Source: Deroplatys truncata (taxonomy: Eukaryota > Arthropoda > Insecta > Mantodea > Mantidae). From it: 64,000 bases of DNA. The stretch's first letter is position 1; each line of letters opens with the position of its first letter. Below the pieces are notes generated by a model. The model searched no databases and was not told the DNA's origin. It saw nothing but the letters and a program-made list of their open reading frames with translations. A program made the translations under genes and the position numbers. The stretch is from the NCBI GenBank assembly GCA_030765065.1, contig CM060989.1, forward strand, positions 56,310,001 to 56,374,000, read 5' to 3'. Below are positions 977-62,755 of the stretch, piece after piece.

Positions 977-1058
977 AAACATAAAATGTGGATTGTGTGT
1001 TCCATGGCAAAGAAATTAATTTCGAGAAATGCTTTTGACTAATAGAAACTTAACAAAA

Positions 1059-1064: not shown

Positions 1065-1169
1065 CCTATATACAGCTTTGTACATGTTTAACATTATCAC
1101 AGTTTAAATAAATAATATATAAGCTTCATAAATACATATTTACAGTATATTACATAATAAACTAAGTGT

Positions 1170-1385
1170 TCAAACAAAATACAAAATTGAGATCACAGAT
1201 AAAATGACTAGCAAAAGATCTTTGGTAAGAGAGATTCCTGAGGCTCTTGTAAACTCGCTAGGCTCAGGCTGCAGGATTCGATCTAGTGCTGCCTTCTGTT
1301 GCATAGAGAGGTATGAAAGCTGTACTTCTGAGATAACTGCTGTGCTGAGCAAAGGCAAAGATTTCAATTGTTCTTCATTCAGTTC
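1170..1385 (-). CDS. Exon 24: C-terminus with hydrophobic GPI-type tail
   Basis: Residues 1317-1387 and the stop TGA at 1172-1170. It reads ELNEEQLKSLPLLSTAVISE, then VQLSYLSMQQKAALDRIL, a spacer with small residues (TRASGIS, 1362-1368) and DLLLVILSVISILYFV at the very end. No cytoplasmic tail follows, so cleavage and GPI attachment are more likely than a transmembrane anchor. The acceptor is atttcag, joined in phase 0 to exon 23. Confidence 0.88.
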   Translation of the reverse strand, partial: ELNEEQLKSLPLLSTAVISEVQLSYLSMQQKAALDRILQPEPSEFTRASGISLTKDLLLVILSVISILYFV

Positions 1386-4300: not shown

Positions 4301-7300
4301 ATGCGGATGGCGGAAAACCAAGAGAACCTGCAACAATCAATAACAGAATGGGCTAGTACATTGGAAGAGAAAGGCATGAATCTAAATGCAAAAAAGAGTA
4401 AAGTAATGATAATTGGTAAAGAGGAAACAGACAAATGCTAATTTTCTGGAAAGGTGAAAAATTAGAAAACGTAACATGCATTGAATATTTAGGGGTGATT
4501 CTAACTAAAAATTGAAGAATAGATCAAGAAATAAACAATAGAATCAGGAAGGAAATAAATATATATTACCAAATTAATAACACTATAATTGGTAAAAGAA
4601 AGTCAAACCACTAAAATGAGAATATATAAGGTGATATACCAGTCAGTTCTATTATATGAGTGAAAGCTTGACAGATTGGATAGAATGCAAGTAGATTAAC
4701 AGCAACACAGATGAATACCTAAGGAGAGTAGTCGGATATACAAAGAGGGATCAAATAAGAGAAAAGCTAAAACAGGAATGTATACTGAAGACAATGGAAA
4801 GAAACCAACTAAGATGGCTGGGACACTTAGTAAGGATGTATGAAGAAAGATTACCTAAAAGAATATTTGAAGCAAGAGCGGAGGGGAAGAGAAGAATGGG
4901 AAGACCTAGGATGGAATGAAGACAACATATGGAAAGAGTGGCAGTCAGACATGGGACGACATTGAGATGAATATACTAGGATCAAATACAGAAAGTGGCT
5001 GAAGGAACTGGACGTTTAACGGCAGCAGGGAAAGTGAAAGAAGAAGTCAAACTGTGGTCCATGGAGCATTTTGAATAGTGAAAAATACTTATAAAAATAG
5101 AAAAAGAGGAAAATGGAGTTTAAAGTTAAATGCAATGCTTTACCTAAATGGTACAGGACCAACTAAATAGCCATTTGTGGCTTTAAAACTTTTGATATTA
5201 AAAGACCATCCTTTGTTCCAAGGTACTGTTTTGCAGTGAATGTTAGGGAATACCTTGATGAACAGTTCAGGCAAGGGACTGGTTGTGGTGGTCCTGTTCC
5301 ACACACTGTTCTTCTGGGTTCACGTGAAGAGCCTAGTTCATGAGACTGTCTAATATGGAGCTGATTGATAGGATTGTAGCAACTACCGACGATGTGCACG
5401 AATCGTCTGGAATGCTAGTGCATGTGCAACAGTCAGTCCATGAGAGGTGATGCTGAGGAGTTTGTCTTGAGATAGTGGTCAACATTTTGAACAATTACTT
5501 TAAACAGTGAAATGGTGTAATTTGGTTGTTTCATGTCATTTTTGTAATGATTGGTTATCTATACCTAAAAATAAATAATTATATTGTCAGGAGGTGATTA
5601 ACTGGTTACAAACTATAATGTAAACATGCCCTACCACAGTTGAAGGTTGGCTTTGTTTGGAAACAGTATTCAGAGTAAACAGATACAAAAATGGTTGAGT
5701 TATTACAAAATAAAAACAATGAAATTATTCGGTGATGAGCCACCATGGACCATGGGTTCCTTATATCAAAACACTCCAAAAACAACTTAGAAGTTTGCCG
5801 GTAGAGTTCAGATTTACACTGTCTATTGAAGCTTACCAATGAAGTTTGAGGTAATAGAGGCTAGAATATTTGCGACAATTTATGGATAAAAGTTCAGCAG
5901 AATATGTTCTAAAGTTTCTTAAACTTGGCACAGCAAACACATGGAAAGTTAAGTTAAACTTTTATGGTTTTAAACAAAAATATTCAACTAACCTTAAATA
6001 TTGTTGGAGGAATACACTTCACAGCAGAAGGGCTTAGCCCCACGAAAGCATTACTGTTAAGCTGTCTCCATTGCTCGCCTTTGAGTCCTGCAATATAAAG
6101 TATAATATTAAGTACCTGCAATAGATATATTGAAATGACCACTCTACTGCAATAAAGTTTATTTTATATACTGAAAGCTGGATATCCAGCTTGATTAGCA
6201 CCTGCTACTATTGTTCCTAATGTCACCATATCATCAGCAGTCCAGGTCTCTGGAGAACCAAATGCAAAATCCTTGGTTGCCAGATGAGTCAACTTCTTGA
6301 GACAGAATGTAGGGCAGTCTTGTATTTTCCCAAGAACAGGAGATGCATTGAAGAATACTGAATGTTCAAACAGCAACCTATGTTCTGATGTAGCAAGGAT
6401 TTCACACAGAATTCGACCAAGAGCAATGGCAGTCTCTGTTGTGATGGTTGCCAAGGATGGATTGCTTTTGGTGAATTTATTACTGATGGCTTCAAGCTGT
6501 AAATGAACATTTGTGTTAACACAGATTGCACTGGAAATGAACACGCACTCATATTTACATAGAACAAAATTATGTGGCTAGAAAGGATATATAGCATAGT
6601 GGTGGAAGCAAGGGTGTTGTACACAGCAGAGATATGGGGGCTGGAAAAAGGATGGGAAAATGTAAATGTTATACAGAAGTTTTACAAAATAAGCCTGGAA
6701 TTACCAAGTAGTTCACCAAATGGAATAGCACAAGCAGAAATAGGGAGGGAGGGAGCTAAAGGCAAAATGGTAGAAAGGGCAATCAAATACTGGTTCAGAA
6801 TAAAGCTACTAGAGGAAAACGAGATACTAAAGCAATGCTTGGTCGTACAGGAGAAAATGGGGAAAAAAGAAACTTGGATGCACAAGATACAGACAACATT
6901 AGAAGAAATAGGAATAGGGGAAACATGGATAGAAAGAAACAGAAGTAAGGTTTTCTGGAAAGAAATTAGAGCAAGAGTGGAGAATATTGAAAAGCAAGAA
7001 ATTACAAGTAGTTTCAAGGAAAAAAGGTCATTAATAGATTATAAATATTTTAAAATGGAATGGGAAAAAGAAAGATACATCAAAGCATGCCACTAAGAGG
7101 CCAGAATGGGGTATGCATAGGCGAGAACAAGTGTAATGAATTTAAGTGGTCTAGCAGGGAGAAGCGGGGGAGGGGGGGAAATACACGAATGCGAGGACAC
7201 GGATAAAGTAAGAATTTAATACTATAGAAATGGAAAAAATTTTACCAATAGAGCTAAAAGTTAGGAAGATTTTTAATAAAAGATCAAATGAATATATGGA

Positions 7301-10300: not shown

Positions 10301-13300
10301 GATGACTGGGATTTCGATGGAGTTTAGCCATTGCAGTTTTAAATCGGTGAATGAAAATAACTTCGTTATCGCAAGTTTATAATTTGTTTTATTTCTCCTC
10401 ATTGTAGCACGCAAGTTTGCATTGTTCTGTTTCTATATTATCAAAAGGGCGTAATTGATTCTACATATGCTGCAATGTTTGTGCAGAGTTATTTTCAATT
10501 AATGATAGTAATACAAAATAGTTATTATTTGACATTCGCTACTTATGTACACTTTTTGTATGTGGCTTAGACACGATAAAAATAACTATCAGCTGTTGTT
10601 TACTAGCCACTCTGGCAATGTCGCAACCACAATATAGCCAACTTTATGCGAAGTCACACAAACTGTCAAGTGCAAAGATTCGGCGGCAGGGGTATATTAT
10701 CTGATCATGATCATTATCCTGCAAAAGGTAGTTATAGATTTCAGTGACCTATTACTTTAAGAAGAAAGTGTACTTACAAGATAGGAATCCTTTACATGCT
10801 GGCCTAGAATAGCCAGGTTATCCAAACCATGCACTGTGTTCAGATTCAAGTTTAGATTCCAAATCACCTCTTCATCTATGGCTTGTATCAGCTTCCCTGT
10901 TAATGACAGCTCTTCAATAAATTTCTCCTACAAACAAAAAATTAACTTTCTTAATGAACCATAAAGTTTTATTTATGAAGAGATGCTAGCCAAGTCCTGT
11001 TAATTCATTCTATTTAAAAACATTGCACAATGGTCATTAGATAAGTATTGAGAAAAGAATAATGAATACTTTTAGAAACATTGTTTATCCCAGGTTCTCA
11101 AAGTATTCCCCTGGCACTGTACACAGCATTCCATCCTCTAAATCACTTCTAGAAGCTTAAATGCCACCCAGTTTCTGCACAAACTTATGTTTTGCTGAAG
11201 TTTAAATTCCTGATAAAATTTCAATTATCTTGAAGATATCTTTGAAGACGAGAGGCTTTTATTACGAATGGGAGAGAAAAAAATTACCATGACAGTACTG
11301 GTAGGGACACACCCATCACTTTTGATAAATATGTGTCTTGTGACAATGGGCGTAACAAATATGGGCATCCAAGATGGATAAAATTTGCAAAAATTAAATG
11401 AGGCAGAATGATGGAGGATGAAGAAATGGTAATAAACATCTGATTCACTCCTAAGTTTCCAAGTAGTAACACTTTATTGTCCTTAATGTCTGTGTTAATA
11501 TGAAAAGATTAACTTGTTTTATTGCAATAATTTACTAAATAATTTCAATATGTTCATGTGATTTAAGACCAACTCTCGCTTAAGGGACAAGAAAAAGGCC
11601 TCCAACAATGAAGGGGGATTTATTTTATATCATTAAGTTTATCCAAAAATTCCTACCTAGAAGATAACCATTGCTGAAGAGTTGCACACAACACAGATTG
11701 TGATGCAGCTATGGCTCGAACTATTGGATGGTGCCGACAGCTGACTATGAAGAGAGATGGCAAGATAAGGGGTAGCACTCTCATCCAGTATAAACACAGA
11801 AGTGGTATCGAGAGATAACCAGAACTTCTGGAAGTTTCCCCTCTCCCCACCTCCCGAACATTCTAGAACTTTATGGAAAATTCCAGCAGCTATGTAAGCA
11901 AGTGCACTTATAAGTTCAATCAGTTAGTGTGTTTTTGGTGCAACAAAGTGCTGGCTATTCTTCGTACTCTGAGTGAGGTTACGACCATAGTTGTGACATG
12001 CAGCGAGTATTGCTACTGAGAGAGATTAAAGCCCCTTGTACACGCTCAAACTTTTTTTTCAATTCAAGAGTTTACAAGAAAAATTGTGAATTTTTTTCAA
12101 TATGCAACAAGATTGGAAAAGACTTGGTAAGACCTGGCAAGACTTGACAATGTCAAAAATGTGTATTTACAAGTTGTCTCTTCGCCAAACTGAAACCCTT
12201 CATAACACATTGATAATTTATCATGCGCAAAGCAATTTAGTATTTACGTCACAGTATAACAATTCGTAATTAAATATTAAATATTACATAGCACTTTCAC
12301 GTATTATATCCAATGAAATCACATTAAGAGTGTGAAATACAATGGAAATAACACCAACCGACAGGTTAACCATACTATATAACACTACATTAATGTATAC
12401 TTAGTTCGGAAAACTGCCTGTCAATTATTTTTCATAATCGCCTTCATCTGCTCCATCTTTTGATAATCCACGGAGCTCTCGATGTACAGACATGGCCACC
12501 TTACGTATAACCTAATCAGTTTGGATAAGACATACCTTCGCTGGGTAGCCATTTTTGTTTACTTTTTGCTTTCAGCCATGTTGCAAATTTCATGACGCAC
12601 TGAATACTCGCATTTCATTGGCCAAAGCCATCAAATCATTGTGAAATCTTTGACCGTTTAGAGCATATCCTTATTTGCTTTCAAGACTTTTCAAACACTT
12701 TGAAAGTATTGGAAGCAATTTGACAAAAAAAGTTGTGAATTGTAACAACTCTTGAAAAGGTTTGTAAAGTATTGAATTAGACAAAAATTTGATTGTGTAC
12801 AAGCGGCTTTAGAGGTGTCTTGTGTTCAACTCCCCAGTGAGTGAACCATCCAAAGAGGAGACTGCATCATGTACATTTCATTATGCTGCTATGTTGTGAA
12901 GAAAGTGAAGAGACAGCAAAAACTGAACAAAGTCACAATATAACCAACTAATTTCTTACAGCTATGGGAGAAGGTGTCTTAACATACCTTATTCATCAGG
13001 CTCCATATTACTTTCTGAACTCTGACATCAAGTTCTAACAACCCAAAGGTGTCAATGCATTTATCAAGCTCTTTTGGATCCATTCCCCTAATGTCATTCT
13101 CATCCAAACCAAACGCTGCTGATAAACCTGCTGCTCTTATAGCATCACAGGAAATCTGAAAATCAAAACATTATTAAGTTGAATGAAAGGTTATTAATTC
13201 AGCATTGCTCCATTAATCTTACAAATCAAGAAGCCATTGCCATTGGATCATAAAGACTTACCTTAGGCCATGGACCTGGAATATAACCATGTTCCGTGGT

Positions 13301-16300
13301 TGTTAATACTGAAACCGAAGTATGGTTGGTTCCAGAAGATCTATTCTGAGAAGCCATTAGAATTTGCCTCAGTAGATCTCCCGACTCTTCCTGTCTTATG
13401 CTGGACCATCTTAACTCTTCATGTTCTAAAACAAATATATCTAAGCTTCAGCATTATCAAAACAAAAGTCCTCAACTGGTTTCACTTTAGCTTCAAAGGA
13501 GTTGTAAACAATATGCGATGTGGGAGTATCTCTTCCTGTATATTAAACAGTTTGGATCAAACGTTAGCATTTTGTGGTTATTCTTGTGCAGAGAAATTTA
13601 AAAAACCCATTATAACAGTTCAATTTATGAAAAAGATGTGTTCGTTCAGATTAATCTGTAACTGAACCATTAAAGCAGAGGGTTTAAGAGGCTGTGCAGT
13701 CGCTGTAGTTCATTTCTGGTTTCCAGATAAGTTTGTACTAACCATGTTTTGAGAAAATATTTCTTTCAATAGTGTCATGGCTGAGAATCCTCTGTCATTG
13801 TGGAGAAAACCTTTGAAAGTAGAGAAAACAATTGTGTTAAATATTAAGAAATTCTGTGAAAAGTATCCACTTCGTGGTTAGCTGTTTAGCAATAACTGAA
13901 CTTCATTGTTAGTGATACAGAATTGATTTCTTGATTGTTTGAAATCACATTTTTGGTTACATTTTCTAACCTATAGTGCTCATTTTTAACTTTATCTTTA
14001 AAAGTTTGAAGAAAAAAATGGTGTACTGATATTAACACAATTTATTAAAATCATATGAACTCCACATACGTCAAGTAGTTGGAAATGCATTTTGAGAAAA
14101 TTCCTGGCCAAGTCATCGTGTCCTATGGCTACTGAGATCTTGCAACTGGTAGGGTATCAAAATTCATAAAACGAGGCTCATTCTTGGTGATAAAAATTCT
14201 TTCCCATATATCAAGTGCTAAGGGAGTCTGTGCTTTTGGGAAATGGGATTTCCCTTTTATTTCATGGTTAAAGTTTCAAAAATGGGATGAAACTGCAGAC
14301 TTGTCCACTTGTTTAAATTTTATGTTCCTTAAATGTTCCTTCATTCTAATTTCTAGGCTCCATTCCGAAGTAAATTTTATCACTAAACATTCCATTTTAT
14401 ATATTCCAGCCATCTTATTTTAGGTAAATTTTTATGAAGGAACACAAACTTTAAACAAGTGAATAAGTCTGCAGTTTCATTCCACTTTTGGAAACTTTAA
14501 CCATGAAATATGGGAAATCACATTGCTCTAACATATCGAGACACCCTTAGCACTTTATACATGGAAAAGAAGGCTCGTCCAAACAAAATATCTGTCAGGA
14601 AATTGCCAGCATTACCCAATGTGAACTACGGTGAGTGATGGATAGTTTTAGCATCTTTCATAAAGTTGGTGAGTAAAGTCTTTAAAAGTAGTTTTAAAAA
14701 TGTACGGTTTCATCTGCGCCTTTCTATGATAGCGGCACCTAGGATGTGGACAGGAAAAACGTCGCACAGCCAGTTCATAGTTTTTTGGCTCACTCTACTT
14801 TATGTATGTGGAGTGCATGTGTTTTTAATAAATTGTATTAAAACTTATATAACTCCACTGTTAATGACTTCATTTTAATTTCATAATACTGTGAAATAGT
14901 AGATAGAGGTGTTTAATTACTCAGGCTGCATTTATTTGCTTACTTCTAGTATTATGTGTTAGAAGTTTAGGATGTAAGGCAAAATATAGGAATAAGAAAT
15001 ACAAATTTTTAAAAGCTAATTATCCCCAAACTGCAGAAAGTTTCTATTTGCATATTGTGTGGAGCAATTTTCTCTTGCATGTACTTTATTTCATCATCCC
15101 TCCACATGGTGCTGCCATGTGCTCAGCAAAGTGATACATTAAGGCTTGTTTACTTCTACCTTGAACTTAAAGAGTGAAACTGGTATACATGTTAAAATAG
15201 TTTATGCATGTTCATTTTGTGATGGAAATGCTATGGTAATAGCTTGAGTATACATTTTGGCTGTTCACAAAAGTTTAGATTTAGACATCTCTTAAAACAT
15301 GATATAGTATCTGCTGCATAACAGTTATGATTATGAATAAATTTCTACAGTTGCAGCTGCTCCCAACAATAATGCATAACTTGTCTGATGAAAGAAAGGG
15401 TAAGTTTCATGAATGTTTATTGTCTATATAGGTACAGCATTTTAGGACAAGAATGAAGTAATGTGTAAATTAAATTGTGATCGGAAGGAAGTCCAAAGAG
15501 CAATTGGAAATCTGAGAAGGATGGATATATGGAAGTTACATCACTGCTACGTGGGGCTGGTGGGAAGAACATGGTTGTGTCAGAGAGAAGATTGGGAGAC
15601 GACATAGTGACGTCAGATCAGAGTGACGTAAGGGCAACAGCTGGCAAAGTTAGGAAAGTTACATCATCGAGGAGGGAGGACGTTCAACCGCCACGTGATA
15701 TGGTTGCGGTCAGGGCAGAGGCGTGGTTTCAGAGTGGCGAATTGGTGGAAGAAGAAAGCATTGTGTTGACACCCAATGGGAGTTTACAAGTTTTGGACAC
15801 AAAGCGGGACCATCAAGGGAGCCAACAGGAATAGATTTATGGAGTAGGAAAGTGTGCCATACGTATAGAAATAGAGCAGGCTCTGCGAGAAGTATGGGAA
15901 TACAGAAGCAGTAATAATGGGGGAGTTAATAGAATAGGGAGGGAGAGTGACTATAGAATGAATAGAAGGGAACAAATTAGAAAAAGTAAAGACAAGTGTA
16001 TTGATAAGCAAGTGATAGATTTATATGAAATCGGGAAGTGAATGAAAGGACGGTAAACACGGATAGGGCTAGAAGGGAGAGTTACATTTCTTAATATGAA
16101 CGATGATGCAGTAATTTGTATCACAAATTACTTAAATGTAAATAATGATTGTAATATGAATATGCATTTTTATGTGACATTGATTTCAGATGTTTATTAA
16201 TTGTAATTATTATTGGGAAATAAGTTTATACGACCTTACTGAAACTGTCAATAATAGCACACAATAATGCAGAGAGGGGGGGTGAGCTGTTTATCATTAT

Positions 16301-33886: not shown

Positions 33887-33962
<76 letters not shown>

Positions 33963-45900: not shown

Positions 45901-48900
45901 TTTGTAACCAACACACTCTTTATTGATTTATGGTTCCCAAGTGGAGTATGACTAAAGCTTATTACAATGCCACACTTATTGCAGCACTCTTAGCTTAGTT
46001 GTAGAGTTAGCTTACTGTTCCCGAGATTGCAAGTTCAAATCTCCATGGGGCTACTCAACTCCCCCTCCCTCTTTCATTTTAAATATAAGAGTGAAAATAT
46101 TACAGGTTTTATTAATTTTTTTATGTATGTGGAACTTATTTAGTAGTCCATCATACCGGTAGATAGCATCCATGACAATTTATTCATCAGGAGGGGGTTA
46201 TATACTTAATTTAATTTTATAACCACAAATTTCACTGTTACTGTAATTATATTTGCAAGTAAAATGAAGTAACACAAGCAATATTGCAATTAATTGTTCT
46301 TTCACACAAGCCGTGTGTTGGACAGGGTTCAAATCCCGGCTATGGCATTGAATTTTTCAGTCATCTGATTCTACCTTTACAAGCAATATTAAAAAGATAA
46401 ATAATCCACTATGTAGAATTTAACTCTTCGCTACTTGCATAGCTTAACCACTGCTCCACAAGCATGATGTAGCTCAAATCAATGCCTTATGGCTTTATTT
46501 TAGAGTTAGCCAAAGCAGCTCACAGAAGTTGACAGTTATGAACCCCACTCACGCTGGAAGGGACGAAAAATTTAATGGCTCAAGAAATTGGCTACTTTTT
46601 GTTTGACTAAGTGTAGATGATCTTAAATTTATTTTCCAAAAAGGCTCTGGTGTCTCACCTCTGAAAATGAAGGGCTAAATGCATAAAAAAAGCACACTTA
46701 AGATTTATTATTTTACATACCCAAGTAGTAGTAGAAGAAAGTAATCTTCAAGAAAGCTGCTGTGAAACAACTGTTTTACTATTAAAAAAAAAAATCTAAA
46801 TCTTAAATCCCTGCTCCCAGGGATCTAAGCAAACTTAAACCATCCGCCGAGGCCAGGCCTCATGACTACCCTGTAAATCTGATTTAATATTTATATAGCT
46901 GCAAGAGTGCATTTTAAACTTTAACAATCCATATAAAATCAACTAATATAATGTGACAGTGCATGCTAAGTTCTACAGATCAACAGTGTGAGCGCCTCTA
47001 GCCCATCTATCTGATGTAGGTTAGACTAATAACCAGTCCCTCTAGAGCAATCGGCACTTTGAACAATAGTCATTGTGTGCCACTTCCATGCTCCAGAGGA
47101 TTCCTTTTGGCCCTTTCTGGTAGGTTCTTGTTCTTGAAAGTTCTTTGTATGTGAGGCCTATATAAAGGGATCTTTTGGCAGGACTAGAGTGTTGAGTTCA
47201 GTCGAGTTGAATGCTATTAGAAGTGATGAAATGAACAGTTTGAGTTTTAACTCGGCAGTTGTGAGTCGTGCAGTTTAGTTGGGATTTAATTCAATGGACG
47301 AGTTGTTATATTCCTAGTATGTGCCAAAGTGACTCCAGTAACATTTGTTACATTGCATGCCTAGCAATAAATAAAATGCGTTTTCGCAGTAAACATACTT
47401 AGTGTGTTCTCATTTACTACAATAATTTTTTTAATTTTTTTTTATGCATTGAGTTGCCAATCTTGATATGATTGTGTGTGGTAGATCTCTAAACAGTTCT
47501 CCAAATGAAGAACGATGCTTCATTTTTGCATTGCCAAGCACTTTTTCTCCCTACTATAGCACAAAACATCCTTTTGTTACACACTTTTTCTTGTCTGGGT
47601 AGAAAGTGCATGTTGTAGCTTGTAGTCTCAATGGGGTATGTCCTAGCTTCTAACATCATACTCTGGCAGTGTTATACCTTGTAGCAGCAGATGAGGGACA
47701 TTGATTCTTACCAGTTATCTTGTGAAAAACAATGAAACAATTGAATACCCACATTTCTAGCTGTGCATTGCATTACATTACAGGAAACAAAGCTGTCGCC
47801 TGATTTTGCAAATCAACACCTTCCGTTCCTTTTTGGTACTAATGGCACACACTGGTTTCCTTACCTCCTCTATGGGTACCTCACTCTCCTTCTCAGTTTG
47901 CCTGTTGCTATTATGATAGCAGGTTCATGTTTCATCAATACTATTTATCTTCCATTTCACTCATAGCAGATTCTCTGTAGACCACATTTCATAATTACCA
48001 CATTTCAAAATATCAGGCAGCACATCTTTCCTATTTACTCTTGTGGTACCAAAGCATTAGTTTTTCTGTACATTAGTCCTCTTAATGGGAGATAGGCAAC
48101 TGAAGTCTCAAAAAAATTTATTCCATTTTAAAAAAAACTGCAATTCTTGCTGAACAGAATGATATATGGGTTTACATGGTTTCAATATTATTTACACTCT
48201 TGAATAGCTATTTAATAAGATAGTGCACCCTTTAAATGCACTGCCATGCCTCCACTGTAATTCTCAAAACTACATTTTCTTTGCTTTGTGTACCTTTTTA
48301 TACGAAAGAGTTGGCCAATCAACCTTGTAGGAACGTGTAAAAATAATGCCTGCTTATTTTTAACTATCATTGTATATTTTGAATAATATGGAAATTTGTA
48401 AATATTATTAAAAAAAATTTAAGCATTTTTTCCTAAATTTTAATTTTTTGTGAAAGCTGTAATTAAGCTATTGGGTTCATTATAGCCTGAATTTAAAGAA
48501 AATATTTTCCAGTGTGTCTGTACTAAATTTCAAGTTGTATCCTTGATAGTTTCTGCAAAAAAGGAACAAAGTTCTATTAAAAAAGGTATATAATATATAA
48601 CCTCAGGATAAAAAAAACGGTTTCATGACATACATATCATATGTACACAAAATTTATGTTGTGCATGTAGCAGACATTAGTATACATGCATAAGAAATTT
48701 GGCAAGCTTATCTGCAACTGCTTAAGAGAAATTTTTTTACTAAAAGGGATACACTTTTGCTTAATTAAGTCATCTATCTACCCCTAAAGAGACCTGGAGA
48801 TGCTTTGAATGCTATTTGTAAGTTAGCACACACTTGCAAGTTGTGTTCATAATGCGATTTAATGCCATTACTACCTTATGCAAGTACAGCTTGTCATACA

Positions 48901-51900
48901 ACTCAATGGGTTAATCAGTATATCACCGATTCCAAGTTTCAATTCTTATTTTGGACCAAAGGAAATCTAAATTAAGAGTTTCAGTTCTGGTTTGCATGGT
49001 TGCTGTCAGAATTTGAAGGTTGTCATTTCTGTTTGAACTTTCACAAAGATATGAATTTTTAATATTGCTGAATTTTTTTTCCCCGCTTCTCTATCACTGA
49101 AAATATTAGGGATTTCTGCTACAGCCATATGGACCATATGGGCCTGGGTGGCAAATTCTTAGGGTCTGCAACATTGAGAAAATGAATATATACATGCTGA
49201 AAATAAATTTTCACATGTGCTAGAAAAAAGCAGCTATGTAGCAGCAATTTTTATTAGCAAGAGGGAAATTGTAGGTGGACATATCTTACATGCATAGTAA
49301 AACTGGCAGAATTACCTTCCTGCTCTGTTTTTGAGTGGCAGAACAATTGTTGGACCCCATGAGTGTAACATCCCTTAAATACAGGGTCATCCTCTGTGGT
49401 ATAGTGGTTAACATGCTAGCCTCTAGTTCCCGAGGTTGCAGGTTCAAATCTGGCAGAGGGTGATGGATTTTTTGGGGGTAAAAATCCTTAGCATGGCTTC
49501 CTTCAGAAGGGAAGTCAGTGGTTCTGTGTGTAGATTTATGGCATGTAAAGGAACCTCAAGCCTGATAGAGGCCTCTGAGCAAAATTTCTGGTCTTTCCAT
49601 GCCCAATATAGAATGGGATGCTAGGACCACGGTAGTTAAAGAGCATCCATAAATAAAAACTTCATTTGCCTAAATGCAGGACTGACTACGGCTATTACAC
49701 AAAACATTCCATAGAATTTCTTGAATGACCAATTTGAGTACACGTGCTTAAATCATGGAAATTTAAATCATTTGTGATTAAGCAATGATTACAAGAAAAA
49801 ACTTATTACTGCGGTATAAGCTAGAATCTGATCATCTCTCAAAAGTATAAGCAAGCATTTAAGATGTGTTTGATCTCTATCTTATTTGTCACAAATAAGA
49901 TGAACATGCTGTTCTTTGAAGTAATATGTTAAAATGTAATTATCATCTGTCCTCTGCACTTGATACCATAACCAAGTTTAACTGTCCTCAGTGTATTAAA
50001 ATTCTTTCAACAAAAAGTATTTACATGTAAAAATGTCTTCTTCCTTCTTCTCCAATGACATAGGAAATCTTGGTTATGCCATTCTTCCTCTAGCATCCTA
50101 ATAAAGTGATGTCAGGTTCTTATTTCATTTATCCAAAAATGGGGCATTGTAGCTAATACTCCTGAATTCAATTATTGCACAGTGTTTAGTTGTTAGAATT
50201 TAAAACCTTTAGTGCATAGAAGTGTTTTGCCAGGTAGTCATGTCCCATCACCATTCTAAAAGAATTACTTCGTTTTCTTGCTTGTATAGGTTTTCATTCC
50301 ACAATGAATCTGATTGAATCAGATATGAATTGTATCATGCTTTTTAATGATGGCATTGCTGGTCAGTTTAATACCCTTTTCTACTTTATATGGTTGTCAA
50401 ATTTTTCATTTCCCAGAAGTCCAATACCAAGAAGATCCATTGGAAGGATATAATTTTATTTAGGTTTAGCAGGGTTTTTAGCATGCTTTTTATTTCCATT
50501 ATTGTTCAGTATTATAGTATACTATTGGAGACTATTCTTATTATTGCAGATTTAGAATCGACTAATACAGGTTTCAAAATAAGATAGTTTCTAAAGTAAT
50601 TATTGGAGTTAGAAATGCATTGCCTCTATTTCAGTGTCAGTTGTTTTTCCCCTACTGGTATACAGTGACTAAAGAATGTAAAAATAATGTTTCAAAAATA
50701 AATAACTTTCATTTTTATTGGGTAATTAAAAATTAATATATTCATTTGTTACCTGTAATTTGTGGAGATTTCTGTGCAGCAAATGAGGGGGCATTTGATG
50801 CTCATTCAAAAGTTTCAGCTCATCAGGTGTAGCACCCTCCAGAAGGAAGCTGAAACTGTACACAGTGATTGTTTGTCATATACTAAATGTTTAAATTCAC
50901 ATCAAGATTCTAAGAAGGTTAAAATCCTACCTGTTTGCATCAACTGGAGTCCAATGAGACAGGTTAAATGGGTATGAATATCGTATAATAGTGTTTGTCC
51001 ATACCCTCTTCTGTGCTTCAGACTTGCCTTCCCAAGTATTTACAGGCCTATCCCAGTGCCAATTCCGTAAGTAGAATAAGCTGCATCATATATTAAAGAA
51101 TTAGCATTTTAATTTTTCTTTAATTTCCACATAAGTACTTTTGTAATAAGTGATAAAGCAAAATAGTGCACTATAATGAATTTAAGAGGAAGTCTATTAA
51201 GGTTTAATCCTATAGAAACATTACTGTGCAGTTATATACATCCATCAGTGTGTTACTTTTATAGGACCCTAAATTTCCAACAACATTGGAGTGTATTGAA
51301 AAATTAATGTAAATAATGAGAAATAAATCATTCAATTCAATACTGTACAGTTTTGTCTAGCTATGTTTTAATCTGGTGTCTAAATTTCTTTTTGTTTTAC
51401 CTATGTATATTTGGTCACATTCTGGGAAATTAATTTGATAGATTCCTGCTGTTTTTGTTCCGAAGTATTTGGCCCTTTGATTTGTTACCTATCCTTAAAG
51501 TTGTTCCTCCAGTCAAAGCCCCCAATATTATAGAAGTTAAAGGAGGCTGTTTAAGAATATATTTTTAGATAATTTTCTGAATATATAAATGTGTAATATT
51601 TCCGGTTTCACGGACTTCATGTAATTATTGGAACTACATTCTTAATTACATGTTTATTTCGAATAACTTATACAAATGAAACAAAATACACTGGCAGATT
51701 ATGCAGATTAATTATACTCACAATTTAACAGCCACTGCCTCTGAAACGGAGGGCAGAAAATATGGAGGTATATGTGCCAAAAGTGGATCGCCAACCTTCT
51801 CAATAATGCCAAACAATTCATGGTTCCAGTTAGCTGCATCTGGTTGCCATTTCAACAGTGACTGAGCCACAATGTCTTGCGTTCTCTGAGGCAGCTGTGT

Positions 51901-54900
51901 TCCTTCCAACTGAAAATAACCTCAACTCATCATGCTGCATATGACTATCTATTTAGGAGTAAAAATAGATGGAGGTAATAAATGGGAGAAACAAAAGAAG
52001 TTTGCATTGGCAAAAGGTAAAGGGGCGATGGCAGCAATTAGAAGCTGCAAATATAGAGTACCTAATATAAATGTTAAATGGCTGGAAAAAGTTTACGAGA
52101 TGGTTGTGGAGGCAAAAATGATGTATGGTATAGAAATATGGGGATTAGATAGAGGATGGGAAAGTAAGATGTGGTGCACAGGATGTTTTGTAGAGAAATA
52201 CTAGGGCTACCGAAGTCAATTGTAAGACAGGTAGCGCAATTAGAGATGGGCAGGTGGCAACTAAAGGGAAGATAATGGAAAGAGCTTTGAAATTTTGGTT
52301 CAGAACTTTAAATCTAGGAAAAAGTAATGTGTTAAGACAATATATTGAATACCAAGAGAATAGCTTAATGAATGATTGATGGGCAAGTAAATTACAGAAC
52401 ATTTTGGAGAAAAATGGGTTAGGAGATATGCGGAGAAGGAGAGAAAATAACGTGAAATTTTTTTGGAAAAAGGCGAGGAAAAGACTGGAAGATATAGAAA
52501 TACAAATCATGTTCAGCGAGATTGCCGAAAAGAGCTCATTAGTTTGTTATAGGCCAATGAAAAATACATGGGGTAGGGAAAAATATATAGACATAGTAAA
52601 TAAAGAAGAGAGAATCTATTGCATGAGTAAGAACCGGAGCATGGAGGCTAAGAGGGTTAAGACAGGGTATTCCTCAGAACCATTGTCCGATATGTGGTGG
52701 TAATGAAGAGATTGAACACACAGTATTTAAGTGCCAAGGAACAGAAAATTGGAGAAAAGAATTTTTTAATAAGAAGTGGTTGAAGGGGGATAGAAATACA
52801 CTTATGATCGAAATGATGTGCAAGGACACTAGAAGCATTGGACAGTTTTTGTGTAAAGTAAAAAATAAGTGGCTTTGGACAGTGGATAGAGAAAAGTAAG
52901 AGGTAGTGCATCTTACTTTGAATGGAAAACTATAGTGAATGTGTGATGGTTAAGTAATCAATAAGTGACAAGTGAAAAACAAGTGGAAATGGGACATGAA
53001 AAAAACTGAAAAAAAAAAGAAAAAAGAAAAAAAAAGAGCAAGACAATTTATTGACAAGAAATTTTAAAATGTAAATAAACTGTAGTGATTGTCTACTAAA
53101 TGAGTGACCAGGGTCAAAGTGCAGTAGACAATCAAATTTGTAAATCTCTTAGCACAATAAATACTATACTACTATATTATCCCAAGTTTACCGTTACTTA
53201 ATGTGTTAATTACCATCTTAAAGAAATCTCTGTAGTGTTTTGGGAAATCCAGTGCTTCTGTCATCTTGAACGCTATCACTGTATCTATCAAATTTTCTCT
53301 CAAGTTCCAAGCCAATGCTGATCCAGTCACATCTTTAAGTTGTTTTGTCTGCAACAATAGAAGTTATTACACTTTAATAGTTTCAATGCAGTAAGTGGAT
53401 AATCTTTATGACATGGTACAAGTGAATGTTTGTTGCATGAATAACAGGTATCAAGACAATGGATAGAACATTTTATGCAATCTTAGCATTATAAATTGTA
53501 GGAAGTAAATTGTGAAATAACTCCGCATCCATATCCGATATAAGTGAGAGCATCACCTTATGTTCATAAATGAGATGTTAGCTTCTCCCCATGCATATCA
53601 TTTATTACCTGGTGCATTGAAATGATAATACGAGGGCTGATCAATAAAGACAGACTGATTTTTTTTTCACAGATATTTATTACTCCATTTCAATGTTGAC
53701 ATGATCTTTTTCAAAGTAGTCCCCTCCTAACTGAATGCACTTTTTATAGCGTCTCTGCCAGTCCTCGAACACATGGTGCAGGCCATTCTTTGTCAGGTCT
53801 TTGAGTATCACCTCACTTTTCTTTAGCACTGCTTCAGTGCTCTCAAATCGAATGCCCCAGAGCTTTGCCTTTATTAATGGGAATAAAAAGAAATCACAGG
53901 GGGTAAGACCGGGGCTTTAAGGCGGATGCAGCACACAGGTAATGTTGATTTAGCCAAAAATTTCTGGACTTGATTTGCGACGTGAGGCCGCGCATTGTCA
54001 TGAAGTCGCCACCCATTCCGATGATCTAGATGTTTCCTTGTAATGTGCTTCCTCAGTGTAGCCAATACTGACGTGTAGTAGCTGCAGTAACAGTAGTGTG
54101 AGGGGGGAACTGCATGCTGGTAAATCATTCCATTCCGAAACACCAGGCCCACCTTGCTTAGCACAGAGGACTCGCCCTTCTTTGAAGTCCTTGAACCACC
54201 TAAACACCATTGCACGAGGTAGTGCATCTTCACCGTATGCTTGCTTCAGCTTTTCCAAAGTTTCAAGGCTGTATGATTTAAACGAAAATAAAATTTTATT
54301 GCGCTGTATTGCTCCTCTCGTGTCACCTCCATTTTGTGGTATGCGAAATTCAAGTAGGGTCAACAATATACAGCATTACTACCAACCTACTGTTACGAGA
54401 GTGCTGTCGCTTATGGACATTATACATGAAACCCTGCTCTTTTCAAGTATTCGTGGTAGAGACTTAAAACTATCAAGGAAACTACAGAAAAAAAATCAGT
54501 CTCAGTCTTTATTGATCAGCCCTCGTACTTACATGATTCTCTTCCTGGGAGTGAAGTGAGCAGGTGTTACAGACTTTGATGTAGTCTATATCAGCACAGC
54601 ATAGTAATTATAAATCCAGATCTTAATAATTTCACATCTAATAATGTACAGAGGTTTTTGCATCTTCATTGTTCAGAGAAAATATCACAAAATGGCTTCA
54701 TCTTCTCTCCATAAATGGTGGCAAGTTGGAATACCATTACAACTTTGCTATTATTGGCACATATGCCATAATGAGCCAATTATGCACATGGCACTGAATA
54801 TATTAACTTGATTATAATGCTATAATTGCATGAAATATATTAATCTTCCATTACTATTAATAGTTAAAATGCATCATTATGATACATTCTACTTTAACTT

Positions 54901-57900
54901 GAAATAGTGGTTCCAATAGTGTGCAATATTTAATGGATTTATTCTTAAACCTTTAATATTTTAAAGGTAATCGTCCAACAATTATCAGATACAATGTATC
55001 AAAATAATATACAACTTTCACTGATGACTATTTGCCCAAACTTAAGTGCCTTGAACTCAATTTATCATGTAATTAAACTATATAATAGATTGCCTAATAT
55101 GTTTAAAAGACACCAGAAGCAAAATTTAAACAGAAAATCAAAACTGCATTACTGTAGATGAATTCAAGCAGCATTATAGCAAGTATATTTTTAAATTACA
55201 TTACTGTATTGACTGTGTGTGTCCTGTTTTGTAAGAAAATGATATGTCCCATATTCAATGGAAACTACCCCTCCAAGAAGTGTTAGAAGTCTTACTTAAA
55301 TTCTACTGCAAGATGGTTAGACTAACCATCAAAATTAAACATTTTAATCTCACCTGCATGCAACAGACCAAATGTTAATGTTTAATTTTGGGGAGGGGAG
55401 TGCAAAGAACCTCTATGCAGTTTTCTGTGGCAAGATGGCAAGAAAAACCAAATTAGTCAATAGTAAACTACTAGAAATGCACAAAGTAATAAATGTATAC
55501 ATTTTTGCAACTACAAATGTTTATATTCAAGTAATTTCCTTACTTCTGAACTACTGAAATGTAGTGCTAGTAAATCTATTTCAAATATTAAATATTTCTA
55601 AGATACTTACAGGAATCAAAAGTAATAAAGGCACAGGAATTTGAACAAACTCATCTGGCGATAATACTGATAGTTTTCCACGGCGACAGCTTCTTCTCAG
55701 TGTAACACTCATATTGTTGTATAACTGCTCTAATCTGTCAGGAACTTGTGTATCTGAAAAAAGGCAAGTTAATAGAAAAGGTCTTTAAATCTGATGTAAT
55801 CAATGAAAGCATTTTAGTATTACCATAGTGTCAATTATCTGACAAACATGCCGTGGTCTGGTTGACGATTGGGAAGGTTGGATGATGCAGAAAGTAACAA
55901 ATACAACATTAAAAACGGCAAAATATATTCATTTAAAAAATGAATGAATTTAATGTACAATTTGTTTTAAAATTTTTATACAATATATATTTCTCATACC
56001 CCTACATTTTATGTACAATTTATCTGGTGCTTGTCTTCTAATTGAGCCACTCAAGATTGCTTGGCTCCCAGGCAATATCGCTCACTGAGCCGCCCTTCTT
56101 TCTTTGTCATACTTTTCTAAACCATTTTTCCTTTACCTTCCTTAAAAATTTCCCCAAACCCTTCATTTTCTTTGCTTCTTTCCCTGTCAACATCTTTATA
56201 GCTACTATTTTTCTATCCATATTTTCCCCATTTCTTTTTCCACTCTTTTCCCTCCAGCTCCTCATTTCCCTAGATTCCATTATATAATGTTCTGTGCTTT
56301 CTCTTCTTCCACACAGCTTGCTTATTCCTCTTGCACTGCCTCTCATCTCTCTTAAACACCTTGATCCTGTTCTCATCCATGCTAAACCTCCCCTTTCTTT
56401 TCTATTACAGTGATCAATGTACCTCTTACCCACCCCTTCTTTATCAAACATTACTTGTGTTACTGTCACTTGCTCAGAACACTACTTTTCTCCCTCCTGT
56501 CAGTCCTTTTCCAGACTTCTATGATGGTTTTTCCTATGTTATTACCCTGTGTCACTTAATGTTTCACCTTTGTTCAATCTCTTCAAAGCTTGAAGTTTTT
56601 CTTCTATTGAAACACACATTTTTCCTCTTTAAAGGATATTTATATACATCCAAATAATGTTACGCTGTTTCATTTTTGTAACCATTGATTGGTGGCCAAT
56701 TGCATCTAATAATGCTGCAGCAACAACAGTGTACTGTCATTTGCGTAGTCCCAGCAGTGTGAACACTCAATGTTATTTTTTTTAACAATGTTTTTCTGCC
56801 GACCAGGTCAGATACCTGGATTGTACTGTTATAATGTATACTACTTATACACACTAGACATTTATAATCATTTGGAATATGAATTAAAACTGGAAGTTGC
56901 ACATAGTGAAGCAAAATTATCATTTTATAGAATATTATTTGAATCTACCATAACTGAGGATGCAGACATGTCTGTTGCTATAGAACATGTTTTGCAAAGG
57001 TTAGTGAAGCTAGTTAAGTGTAAATTTAACTCCAATAGTGTTCTATAAAAGTTATTTGTAATTTTAGTTGGAGATTCAGAAACTTTGTAATACAAAATAA
57101 GATTATCAGCCAAACCTTCTCTTAGATAATCCTATTTATGGACCAATTTGAGTTTTACATGGGCAAACACATCAGCATGATAGTGAAAGTTTGGCACTTA
57201 GGATAAGTCTACAGCAATATTAATTATGAACACTTCATAAATAATGGACTGAAGGTGGAAATTTTCCCCCTAGGCTGAAAGATAAGGCACCATTATTCAA
57301 GTTTTTCTGAAGTCATTAGTCAATGGAAGTACTTTTTTCAAAGTAGGAGAAAACAAATGGTTAGTAATCTACTGGGATGATAAATATGAAAAACTTTGGA
57401 AAGGTCAATTTGCTTATTGCCAAACATCAATACATTACGATTATTTGAAGACAGGCTAAAGATTATCCAACTTATTCAACAAACCAGTGATTAAGAAATA
57501 ATATTCTAGATTTTTATTTCACCAAATGAAGCTACGGGTATATTCTGCCACATCACATTTCAAAATTGTCATTTTCCTGACGAAAGCTATGCTAATTATA
57601 CAGCAGATAAGCTGTATGATAAGTTGGTAAGAAATTTTAAGAATACTTTTTGCTAACTTAATGGCAAATTCATTTATTTTACAGTGGTTGGTTTACATAT
57701 GTCTTAAAAGGAAATGAGTTATTATAAGGTATGGAAACTAAGTGAATCAGCAGGAAAATGTGTTAGTGTAAGAGAAGGCAGGTAGAAACACTAGAGATTG
57801 TTAACGATTTCATTTATCTAGGTATAAAAATGAATATAACATAACTGGGGAAGTAAAACAAGACAAGACTGGCAAAAGGAAGGTCTGCTATTAAGTTGAA

Positions 57901-60900
57901 ACTGTTTACTTATAGCAAAAGTAACTGATGCAAGATGGTTTAGTAGAATTAAGTTGGAGTTATGAAGTAGAGATATGGGGAATAAAGTAAGGTGGGAAGA
58001 AATGAACAAAATCTTTGACTCGTGATGCAAAATTGTATTAAAAATTACTCCCAATATTCTGCAAACCTGGGTGCTATGGTAGAGATGGAGAAATTTGGGC
58101 TGGAGGGGATGATTAAGGCTTTTGAAATACTGGTACCAGATTCAGTAACTCCTGAAGGGCATATACTAAAAGATGGTTTAAAACATCAGAGGAACACTAA
58201 CAGAAACACAAAACAGATTAGATTCCTGAGAAACTGACAGAAATATGCAGATAGAGAAGGACATTTCAATATATCTTATGATAAGGTATGTGCTTATTTT
58301 AATTGTCACTGTAAACGAGGCAATTACAGGGATATTATAACTCTTGGTGGGAGTCCAAGCTGCAGCAGCCAGCACATGAGAAACCATGGTGGCCACAACG
58401 TGAAGGAAAAACACTATACATAGCAAATAGGTCATAGTATATTAGTGCATTTAAACAACTGGCACACTTTACTAAATATTGCTACATGCCGAGACCTCAG
58501 AATTACAAGCAAAGCACCAATTTTTAACTTTTAACTAGCATTGAACCAAGCTGCCAATTTCAGTATGTATAAAATATGTGTTTGTCAATTTTACAAACAA
58601 TTTAAATGCAGATTAATATACTAGAAATTCTGCACATGTTCTTCCACTTACCTTCAGACACAGAACAAAAGTTCTTTGTACCCAAGCGCAACAGACATGC
58701 TAGTTCTGATTTTGAGCTGCGAGATCCAACTGGGCCTGTAATACAAAATGCTTGAGAACCTCATTTTAGATTTTAACAAATATAGAATACCATTTCTGTG
58801 AACAAATCAAAAAATAATCTGACGAGTTGCATTCACATGACACTACCCACTGCTCTACAAACTATCCTTACTAAAGCTTATTCCCCTAACTGATTCACAT
58901 TAATCCAGATAAACATTTGCAGAAGGGTTTCATTATAAGTTACAAGCTTAAGCAATAGTCACATCTTTTAAAAGACGGTTGCTATGATTCTATTCTGTGA
59001 CCACAAGAAAAAACAAAACTGAACACATTTTAAGTTGTTCAAGTTGTGTGAAATATGTTAGTTTATTTAATGCTGTCCCTAATGATCTTAAGGGAAAAGT
59101 TGACAATTTCAATGTCTTTAAAACTGCTATTAAAGAGTATCTATGCTCATAAGCATATTCTTCTGTACAAGATTACCTGAATGATAAATTATCCTGATAA
59201 TACATATATAGCTCTGTTAGTAGTATTAGTAAATATTAATGACAATTGCCAATTACATTTGAAACCTGCTCTAGAACTAATGAAGCTATTTAAATGTATG
59301 TATATTAAGAACCGACAGTAAATGCTATATTTTACAAATCAAATAGAACAAAATGATGGGACGAACAAAAGGTACAAGCCTAGTGAAAGTTAAGATAACT
59401 TGTCTATAAATATAATGTTACCCTTATAACGGTAGGGAGATATTTGATTTTGCACAAAATTACACCCGATTTATTTCATTTTATATAATGTCTCTTAAAT
59501 GTTCTGTATTTTATGTAGTATTTATGTATATATGTAACTATATTGTACATTTCCTTGACATGCATATAGTATGTCATTTTTAAATGTCCTATATTCTATG
59601 TAATATTTATGTTTATATGTAATTTTTCTACATTTCCTCGACATGTTTTATGTTCACAAGCCTTTATGGCTGCTGGTGAACTCTCAGAATCAATCTAATC
59701 TATTTTTGGGATTTGGGAATGAAATCAATCTTCTTTCTATAGATATAAGATCCTTTAAAACAATTTTCAGCACAAAGCATAGTTAAATAAAAAGGGAAAC
59801 AATTTATTAATATATTATCATTGATCTTTATTAGTTATAGGGCTTATATAACCTGTGGTAGTATAAAATGCTGCCAATTGGAGAATGACAAATAGACGAT
59901 TTCAAATTTGCATACAACACAAAATTGGCTACATACATTTATACACATGAAACTACTAATAACTAGTTTTGTTTATATAGTGAGTATCAAAACTCAATGT
60001 TCAAAAATCAGTATTGAGTATCAAGAAAATGACATTGTCCCATCACTACTTAAATAGATTATATTTTAATCAAAATTGTTAGCCATTTTTGAGAAAATCA
60101 AATATGACTAAAAAATTGTCCATATTAAAGATAGATTTGGGATTTTCTTCAAAATCTTTGTGTTGCATCCTTGGAAAATGTTAACCAACTTTTCGATTTT
60201 GAATTACAGTACTCACTCTTAAACTTTCTAAAATTATTTTTGAGATTCAGTGGGCCTCAAAACGCGTATATCGGTGGCATTTTGGAATATAATTTTTGTG
60301 GTTTGACATTGAATTTTTCAGTCCTCTGATACCTTTCCAACCTTGTCCTACACACGGCTTATATGGAAAACAAATTAATTTCAGGAGCAATGTATGGCCA
60401 AAAGAGAATCTGGAGTATTAATTCATGATGGTAAGTAGGTATCCTTTAGGCAAAGGACCCTTAAAATCAATATAAGCATTCAAATGTTAGATTTCCTTCA
60501 CATTTTATAAATCTAGGCTTGAGCTCGGCACAAATTCTATAGTCACTTTCGTAACTATTCAATAAGCTGAACGTCTTTTTAGAAAAATAGGGGCCGATTC
60601 TCTCATTGCCTTGAACAGTGAAAAATCGCTAATGATCAAATCTGTCAATGTCCCGCCTTATTGCGGTCTTCATTGCTCATACTAGCGCCTTGACACAAAA
60701 GTAACGGCCAATTGCGTAACTAGCGAAGTCTTCGTAACTGAATTTTGCCAGGATTTGCTTCTTCCGAGAATTCTCAATTGCTGTAGCACGCGAATGGTTC
60801 GGAATGTAGAAATAAAACCTTTCTTTTACACCAATATATACTATTTTCATATCATTTAACGGCAACAGTTGCGAGATCAGTAGCATAAAGGATCTTTATT

Positions 60901-62755: not shown

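What the first reader, a model, noticed from the sequence alone, without database searches (positions are those of the whole stretch)
1170..62755. Intact arthropod gene resembling stereocilin/otoancorin/mesothelin
Twenty-four exons, found by splice sites and phase alone, give one 1387-residue open frame with signal peptide, Trp/Leu-Gly helical repeats and a C-terminal anchor signal. In vertebrates this superfamily attaches extracellular matrices to cell surfaces (otoancorin and stereocilin in the inner ear, mesothelin on mesothelia). A secreted member in an arthropod would suggest an older role in apical matrix attachment, for instance in cuticle or chordotonal sense organs; that role is my inference.
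Basis: partly seen in the sequence, partly recalled or inferred. Interest (0 to 1): 0.85.

Follow-up and report, generated by a model that had tools for sequence, protein, structure and literature searches.

The report
Insect gene resembling mesothelin-type surface proteins
This insect chromosome carries an intron-rich gene for a secreted, probably membrane-tethered, helix-rich protein that weakly but repeatedly resembles the vertebrate mesothelin/otoancorin/stereocilin adhesion proteins, which would extend that hearing-related family to insects if orthologues and expression data bear it out.

Summary
The gene is real: minus strand, ATG at 62755 to TGA at 1170. A splice-aware search scores the minus strand 93, plus strand 23, 100 simulations at most 6.9; with transposon-like stretches scrambled 85 and 11. 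Exact junctions are unsettled: 24-26 exons, 1351-1387 residues. The genome is an insect's and shows no second copy (capped).
Architecture: signal peptide; two modules sharing AFGSPxTWTAxxxxTLG; S/T-rich linker with furin-like RDKR; hydrophobic GPI-like tail.
Family assignment is weaker. No mesothelin match in Pfam. Against human mesothelin, 0 of 400 full and 1 of 400 local shuffles reach the gene's score; one of its exons is mesothelin's best match among 1152 six-frame ORFs, but only at E=0.029. Some controls go the other way. Single-exon folds were uninformative. Membership is probable (about 0.6), not proven.
Corrections: a tempting exon (3172-3302) is a repeat; the tail overlaps a sequence found on three other chromosomes.
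The matrix-attachment role is inference; a gonadal role is an equal rival.

The parts
62677..62755 (-). Exon 1: start codon and signal-like peptide (MISISKWDLRGSVSFLMLLSLLTVAP)
   Evidence: In-frame stop just upstream; donor CAG|GTAAGC; second most hydrophobic 17-mer of the protein
51722..58735 (-). N-terminal part: exons 58652-58735, 55611-55753, 54533-54544 (doubtful), 53214-53348, 51722-51909; contains LSPDEFVQIP
   Evidence: 4 of these 5 exons appear as separate matches, at the window only
45442..51047 (-). Least certain stretch: exons 50931-51047, 47865-47901, 46659-46674 (doubtful), 45442-45611
   Evidence: Alternative exons score nearly as well; 2 of these 4 appear as separate matches
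36359..43531 (-). Body: exons 43331-43531, 41276-41483, 39455-39621, 39132-39326, 36359-36497
   Evidence: all 5 appear as separate matches, at the window only
34718..34881 (-). Exon carrying the clearest mesothelin-like stretch (GYVLANLPLENIESATYGYEILEAIGSLPLTELL...SLAKFM); the alignment runs across the junction with exon 36359-36497
   Evidence: Middle part vs mesothelin 66, shuffled 36.6 +/- 5.2, 0 of 500; its ORF is top of 1152 by phmmer, E 0.029; three helices predicted, mean pLDDT 61
24340..32394 (-). Exons 32189-32394, 28030-28219 (AFGSPFTWTAGVLATLG), 24340-24589: end of first module
   Evidence: Internal repeat with exon 6202-6496: 2 of 300 shuffles, 0 of 500 for the trimmed modules
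21046..21420 (-). Exon for a 125-residue S/T/E/N-rich linker with furin-like RDKR (residue 1015)
10868..13425 (-). Exons 13262-13425, 12988-13155, 10868-10927 (or 10778-10927): start of second module, Cys1083...Cys1113 (CDAIRAAG...GMDPKELDKC)
   Evidence: GMDPKELDKC is the best hit of a motif matrix made from mesothelin, 11.5; end-to-end alignment to mesothelin 0 of 500 shuffles with BLOSUM62, 1 of 500 with BLOSUM45
5993..6496 (-). Exons 6202-6496 (AFGSPETWTADDMVTLG) and 5993-6087 (LSPSAVKCIPP)
1170..1385 (-). Last coding exon: ELNEEQLKSLP... and C-terminal hydrophobic tail KDLLLVILSVISILYFV, stop at 1172-1170
   Evidence: Most hydrophobic 17-mer of the protein; AATAAA at 1064-1059
1077..1296 (-). 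Stretch covering the last 41 codons, the stop and early 3' UTR that recurs at 73-76% identity on C16, C7 and twice on C12
3172..3302 (-). NOT an exon: repeat fragment (resembles a hAT transposase C-terminus, label recalled) that my gene finder chained in at first
   Evidence: 8 of 11 off-window matches are to this piece; 6 of the 8 checked by blastn, repeat spans 3201-4085

Best explanation
An insect gene, with no second copy found, encodes a secreted glycoprotein of about 1350-1390 residues, tethered to the outer cell surface by a GPI anchor. Its body is a helical solenoid made of at least two mesothelin-type modules separated by a flexible, possibly furin-cleaved linker. Like mesothelin, otoancorin and stereocilin, it probably works as a non-enzymatic adhesin: the superhelix binds glycoproteins or polysaccharides of an apical extracellular matrix and the lipid tail fixes that matrix to the cell. 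Shown: the gene, its layout and an internal repeat. Statistically supported but not proven: common descent with mesothelin. Inferred: signal peptide use, GPI attachment, solenoid fold, furin cleavage, matrix binding and tissue.
For: Gene score 93 (85 with transposon-like stretches scrambled) vs at most 6.9 in 100 simulations. Signal-like N-terminus, 11 N-glycosylation sequons, RDKR in the linker, C-terminal hydrophobic tail. Whole gene vs human mesothelin 66; 0 of 400 full and 1 of 400 local shuffles reach it; reversed gene 49. phmmer of mesothelin ranks ORF 34688-34918 first of 1152. First module vs mesothelin, local, z 8.1, 0 of 500, reversed 26; module vs module z 5.7, 0 of 500, reversed 29; second module vs mesothelin end to end 40 vs 11.3 +/- 5.6, 0 of 500, reversed 15. 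Mesothelin is a right-handed helical solenoid with disulfide C442/C468 (PMC10035497, passages); the second module has Cys1083...Cys1113 with the same P-x-[ED]-L-D-x-C ending (read by eye from the sequences). The family is thought to bind carbohydrate and to attach cells to the tectorial membrane (PMC2628672 Discussion; PMC7886070 passages).
Against: No PF06060 match at E <= 10; NCBIfam gave only a chance hit for the two parts tried. phmmer against the PDB, with an early 1681-residue chain, finds nothing of the family. E 0.029 in 1152 ORFs is marginal, and the second-ranked ORF (+10118-10255, E 0.15; Smith-Waterman 53) is not part of the gene. Second module, local: 46, below its reversed control 51 (2 of 500 shuffles); BLOSUM45 75 vs reversed 78; BLOSUM45 end to end 60 vs reversed 57. 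First module end to end: 7 of 500 and 23 of 500 shuffles. As first cut, the C-terminal part gave 27 of 500 and the N-terminal part 67 of 500. Whole gene with BLOSUM45: 2 of 300. Single-sequence hhalign probabilities 0.5-1.2%. Module borders were chosen after seeing alignments. Single-exon folds have pLDDT 48 and 61 and no useful PDB match. The C-terminal tail overlaps a repeated sequence.
Confidence: 0.55

Rival explanations
1. An insect-specific secreted helical-repeat protein unrelated by descent to mesothelin; the likeness comes from shared helix-turn grammar (hydrophobic-x-P-E-x-L-x-x-L).
For: No curated family match; motif enrichment is modest: 20 vs 12.9 expected (19 of 500 shuffles), 12 vs 6.5 (16 of 500), 3 vs 1.3 (64 of 500) at rising thresholds; the reversed control beats the forward local score for the second module.
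Against: Reversed gene gives 11, 6 and 0 motif hits at the same thresholds; the best stretch aligns over about 60 residues across an exon junction; the second module aligns end to end with 0 of 500 (BLOSUM62) and 1 of 500 (BLOSUM45) shuffles.
Confidence: 0.33
2. A member of the mesothelin superfamily acting in gonad or gametes (testis or seminal surface adhesion) rather than in cuticle or sense organs.
For: Botryllus otoancorin is expressed in testes, and human otoancorin is also classed as a cancer/testis gene (PMC4523013 passages). Two semen proteome papers (quail PMC12853081, catshark PMC11083954) hold the term 'mesothelin-like' once each (search listing only).
Against: No expression data here; otoancorin and stereocilin act in the vertebrate inner ear (PMC7886070 passages).
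Confidence: 0.3
3. The protein is secreted or transmembrane rather than GPI-anchored: the C-terminal tail is a low-copy repeat fragment captured at the end of the reading frame.
For: Window 1077-1296 recurs at 73-76% identity on C16, C7 and at two C12 places, all four matches beginning at 1295 or 1296; two pairs of copies share about 70 further bases upstream that the window lacks; the C12 copy has an internal stop.
Against: The tail has a GPI-like form (small residues, short spacer, terminal hydrophobic run; by eye, hydrophobicity). Differences from the copies by codon position: C12 6/4/14, C16 9/10/15, C7 6/4/6; small numbers, two of three lean to third positions. An ancient family of last exons would explain the copies equally well.
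Confidence: 0.2
4. A decayed or mis-assembled gene: the chain is a product of the gene finder.
For: Introns hold transposon fragments, and my unguided chains pulled in transposon-like open frames; stop-free frames and GT-AG borders are imposed by the search.
Against: Score far above simulations, also with transposon-like stretches scrambled.
Confidence: 0.03

Closest known systems
Mesothelin / mesothelin precursor (PF06060; structures 7ued, 8cx3)
   Same: Signal-like N-terminus, N-glycosylation sequons, a furin-type site between two parts, C-terminal GPI-type tail; weak similarity, mainly to the part from mature Cys442 on
   Different: About twice as long as the 622-residue precursor; two modules; long S/T-rich linker; no curated match
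Otoancorin
   Same: Similar size (1153 residues) and GPI-anchored apical attachment protein by the literature; a likeness of the x-P-x-x-W...LG motif is recalled, not tested
   Different: No otoancorin sequence was at hand, so no direct comparison was made
Stereocilin
   Same: Larger relative of mesothelin (1775 residues) that links hair bundles to the tectorial membrane
   Different: Not compared directly; the insect protein is shorter

Membership tests
Mesothelin superfamily | Match to the Pfam mesothelin profile PF06060 | tested here: not met
   No match at E <= 10 for an early 1681-residue chain, three parts or the first module; only chance hits to BipA_C. Positive control human mesothelin E 4.7e-172
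Mesothelin superfamily | Detectable sequence similarity to a member | tested here: inconclusive
   Whole gene 0/400 and 1/400 shuffles, BLOSUM45 2/300; top of 1152 ORFs but E 0.029; hhalign 0.5-1.2%; reversed controls mixed
Mesothelin superfamily | Extracellular ARM/HEAT-like helical solenoid | tested here: inconclusive
   Two single exons predicted with helices and no strands at pLDDT 48 and 61, no PDB match of worth; full protein not sent to the predictor
Mesothelin superfamily | Conserved disulfide equivalent to mesothelin C442/C468 | tested here: inconclusive
   Cys1083 and Cys1113 lie 30 apart, ending PKELDKC, against 26 in mesothelin, ending PQDLDTC (by eye); pairing unknown, and the printed alignment does not put the cysteines together
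Mesothelin superfamily | Signal peptide and C-terminal GPI signal | tested here: inconclusive
   By hydrophobicity only: the two most hydrophobic 17-mers are the C-terminal and N-terminal segments. No signal-peptide or GPI predictor was run
Mesothelin superfamily | Carbohydrate or matrix binding on apical surfaces | not testable with these tools
   Needs protein and tissue
Stereocilin / otoancorin subgroup | Closer to stereocilin or otoancorin than to mesothelin in a tree | not tested

The most novel reading that the evidence does not exclude
Insects keep a mesothelin/otoancorin/stereocilin-type anchor made of two tandem modules, so the protein that holds the tectorial membrane in our ear descends from an anchor of apical matrix already present in the ancestor of insects and vertebrates, and in insects it fastens cuticle or sensory caps to cells.
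Probability: 0.2. Interest if true: 0.75.

Novelty: new member of a known kind. Interest (0 to 1): 0.42.

Why it matters
If orthologues confirm the link, a deafness-gene family becomes open to insect genetics, and attachment of apical matrix to cells could be compared between the inner ear and insect cuticle or chordotonal organs. In the listings I saw I found no insect member by title and abstract; outside vertebrates I saw a Botryllus otoancorin and one mention of a mussel stereocilin. If the link fails, this is an uncharacterised insect surface protein without a Pfam model.

Tried and rejected
Exon 3172-3302: my first chains included it; rejected because it belongs to a repeat spanning 3201-4085 found on several chromosomes. 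Searches were made with an early 1681-residue chain, with a 1392-residue one and with parts, the first of which still held that piece; they were not repeated for the whole of the final model. Open frames at 56.1-56.5 kb and 53.9-54.4 kb (minus) entered the unguided chains and were penalised; the second carries a Mos1-type HTH. PF06060 over the whole genome: nothing, but the search rings in none of 14 control genomes, so it shows nothing. PDB sequence search: two chance hits, E 2.2 and 2.4. NCBIfam, C-terminal and middle parts only: one chance hit. Foldseek with the single-exon models: 26 chance matches at E 3.7 or worse, and none. MAFFT alignments of the modules put the repeated parts out of register and were not used. 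Paralogues near the tail copies: one 10-kb stretch on each of C7, C16, C12, nothing beyond the tail and chance hits at E 1.5 or worse. Literature: listings (one search was too broad to use); I saw passages of PMC7886070, PMC4523013, PMC10035497, PMC8696127 and the abstract, Results and Discussion of PMC2628672; the others were seen as listings only.

Full report
What is there. The window (G000:C15:56310001-56374000 of a 4.29-Gb genome) is 65.5% A+T (base counts). A splice-aware dynamic-programming search with generic insect donor/acceptor matrices and a codon model finds one strong chain on the minus strand: 93.2 against 23.5 on the plus strand and at most 6.9 in 100 second-order Markov simulations of the minus strand. 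That chain includes some transposon-like open frames; with 11 such stretches scrambled the values are 84.9 and 10.9, and the 26-exon model alone scores 65.8. My working model, with the shorter exon 10868-10927, has 26 exons and 1357 residues; without two micro-exons 24 exons and 1351 or 1381 residues. Freedom from stops and GT-AG borders are imposed by the search.

Copy number and organism. A protein search of the whole genome (33 of 86 first-look candidates scored) returned 34 places: 23 in the window and 11 elsewhere. One of the 23 and 8 of the 11 are to the piece 3172-3302; blastn on 6 of those 8 shows it to be part of a repeat at 3201-4085, so I removed it from the model. The other 3 of 11 are to the C-terminal tail. 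The remaining 22 window places correspond to 22 of the 26 exons; none of these 22, the last exon's tail apart, was matched elsewhere. At this capped sensitivity no second copy is seen. The genome has 37 matches to 7tm_6, the insect odorant receptors (specificity recalled), so I take it for an insect.

Architecture. The two most hydrophobic stretches are the last 17 residues and the N-terminal signal-like segment. There are 11 N-glycosylation sequons, 14 cysteines and two R-x-[KR]-R sites, one (RDKR, 1015) in a 125-residue S/T/E/N-rich linker exon. AFGSPFTWTAGVLATLG (residue 752) and AFGSPETWTADDMVTLG (residue 1234) mark two related modules on either side of the linker; module against module scores 62 vs 31.2 +/- 5.4, 0 of 500 shuffles, reversed 29.

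Is it a mesothelin relative? Against: no PF06060 match at E <= 10 with an early whole chain or parts, though human mesothelin gives 4.7e-172; no related family in NCBIfam for two parts and nothing in the PDB for the early chain. For: the 1357-residue protein against human mesothelin (piece recalled, confirmed letter for letter against 7ued) scores 66, with 0 of 400 full shuffles and 1 of 400 local shuffles reaching it, reversed gene 49; with BLOSUM45 2 of 300. By Smith-Waterman over 598 ORFs of 40 residues or more the best is the ORF holding exon 34718-34881 (63), the next an unrelated plus-strand ORF (53), the rest at most 38. phmmer without filters over 1152 ORFs of 30 or more puts the same two first, E 0.029 and 0.15. 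By thirds, the middle part gives 0 of 500 shuffles, the C-terminal part 27 and the N-terminal part 67 of 500. Trimmed first module: local z 8.1, 0 of 500 (BLOSUM45 0 of 500), end to end 7 and 23 of 500. Trimmed second module: end to end 0 of 500 (BLOSUM45 1 of 500, reversed 57 vs 60), local 2 of 500 (BLOSUM45 0 of 500) but with reversed controls of 51 and 78 above the observed 46 and 75. Module borders were set after seeing alignments, so those figures are inflated; the whole-gene and all-ORF tests do not depend on that choice. A matrix of mesothelin's repeat motif finds 20 hits against 12.9 expected (19 of 500 shuffles reach 20), reversed 11; stricter thresholds 12 vs 6.5 (16 of 500) and 3 vs 1.3 (64 of 500). 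I judge common descent likely (about 0.6) but short of proof.

Structure. The predictor takes only proteins that the DNA gives letter for letter, so two exons were folded alone: helices and no strands, mean pLDDT 48 and 61, with no meaningful PDB match. This adds nothing beyond 'helix-rich'.

The tail. Window 1077-1296, covering the last 41 codons, the stop and some 3' UTR, recurs at 73-76% identity at C16:127792651, C7:139487075 and two C12 places, all four matches beginning at 1295 or 1296. Two pairs of copies (C16 with C7, C16 with the second C12) share about 70 more bases upstream that the window lacks. No other exon of the gene is found in one 10-kb stretch around each of three copies. 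The C12 copy has an internal stop; the C16 copy is open to a stop at the same place as the window. Either the copies are remnants of related last exons, or a low-copy repeat supplied the anchor signal; I cannot tell. Window 900-987 is a separate repeat (35 of the 40 matches, a capped list).

Function. Mesothelin is a solenoid of 24 short helices (PMC10035497 passages); the family has been proposed to be superhelical lectins (PMC2628672 Discussion), and GPI-anchored otoancorin anchors the tectorial membrane (PMC7886070 passages). By analogy the insect protein would tie an apical matrix to cells. Botryllus otoancorin in testis (PMC4523013 passages) makes a gonadal role a serious rival. Nothing here measures expression.

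In print. Searches for stereocilin with arthropod, stereocilin with insect, otoancorin with insect, otoancorin with Drosophila and ortholog, and '-like' forms with insect listed no paper on an insect member by title and abstract; most listed papers were not opened. A mussel transcript called stereocilin is mentioned once (PMC8696127 passage). Subscription papers and annotation databases were not searchable, so an automatic annotation may exist.

Noticed in passing
window 3201-4085: Repeat on several chromosomes whose translated copies resemble a hAT transposase C-terminus (label recalled); one piece mimics an exon of the gene.
   Followed up: partly
window 1077-1296; C16:127792651-127792872, C7:139487075-139487251, C12:118278651-118278853, C12:118355473-118355677: Low-copy sequence shared at 73-76% identity that overlaps the gene's C-terminal hydrophobic tail; the C16 copy stays open to a stop at the same place.
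   Followed up: partly
window 900-987: Repeat just downstream of the gene's 3' end (35 matches in a capped list, a lower bound).
   Followed up: no
window 376-804 (+), 54001-54375 (-), 61206-61526 (-): Mariner-type transposase fragments: Transposase_1 (E 1.9e-17) and Mos1 HTH_48 (E 2.6e-5); the third has no Pfam match at E <= 0.01 and is labelled by eye.
   Followed up: partly
window 6563-7093, 51920-52201, 52380-52700, 18768-19274 (+), 56110-56481 (-): Open frames that look like LINE remnants by eye; none of the five has a Pfam match at E <= 0.01.
   Followed up: partly
window 44800-45393 (+) and 15481-15831 (+): Open frames of 198 and 117 codons on the strand opposite the gene without Pfam match at E <= 0.01; origin unknown.
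   Followed up: no
window 10118-10255 (+): Short plus-strand ORF that scores second best against human mesothelin (Smith-Waterman 53, phmmer E 0.15) though it is not part of the gene; probably chance.
   Followed up: no
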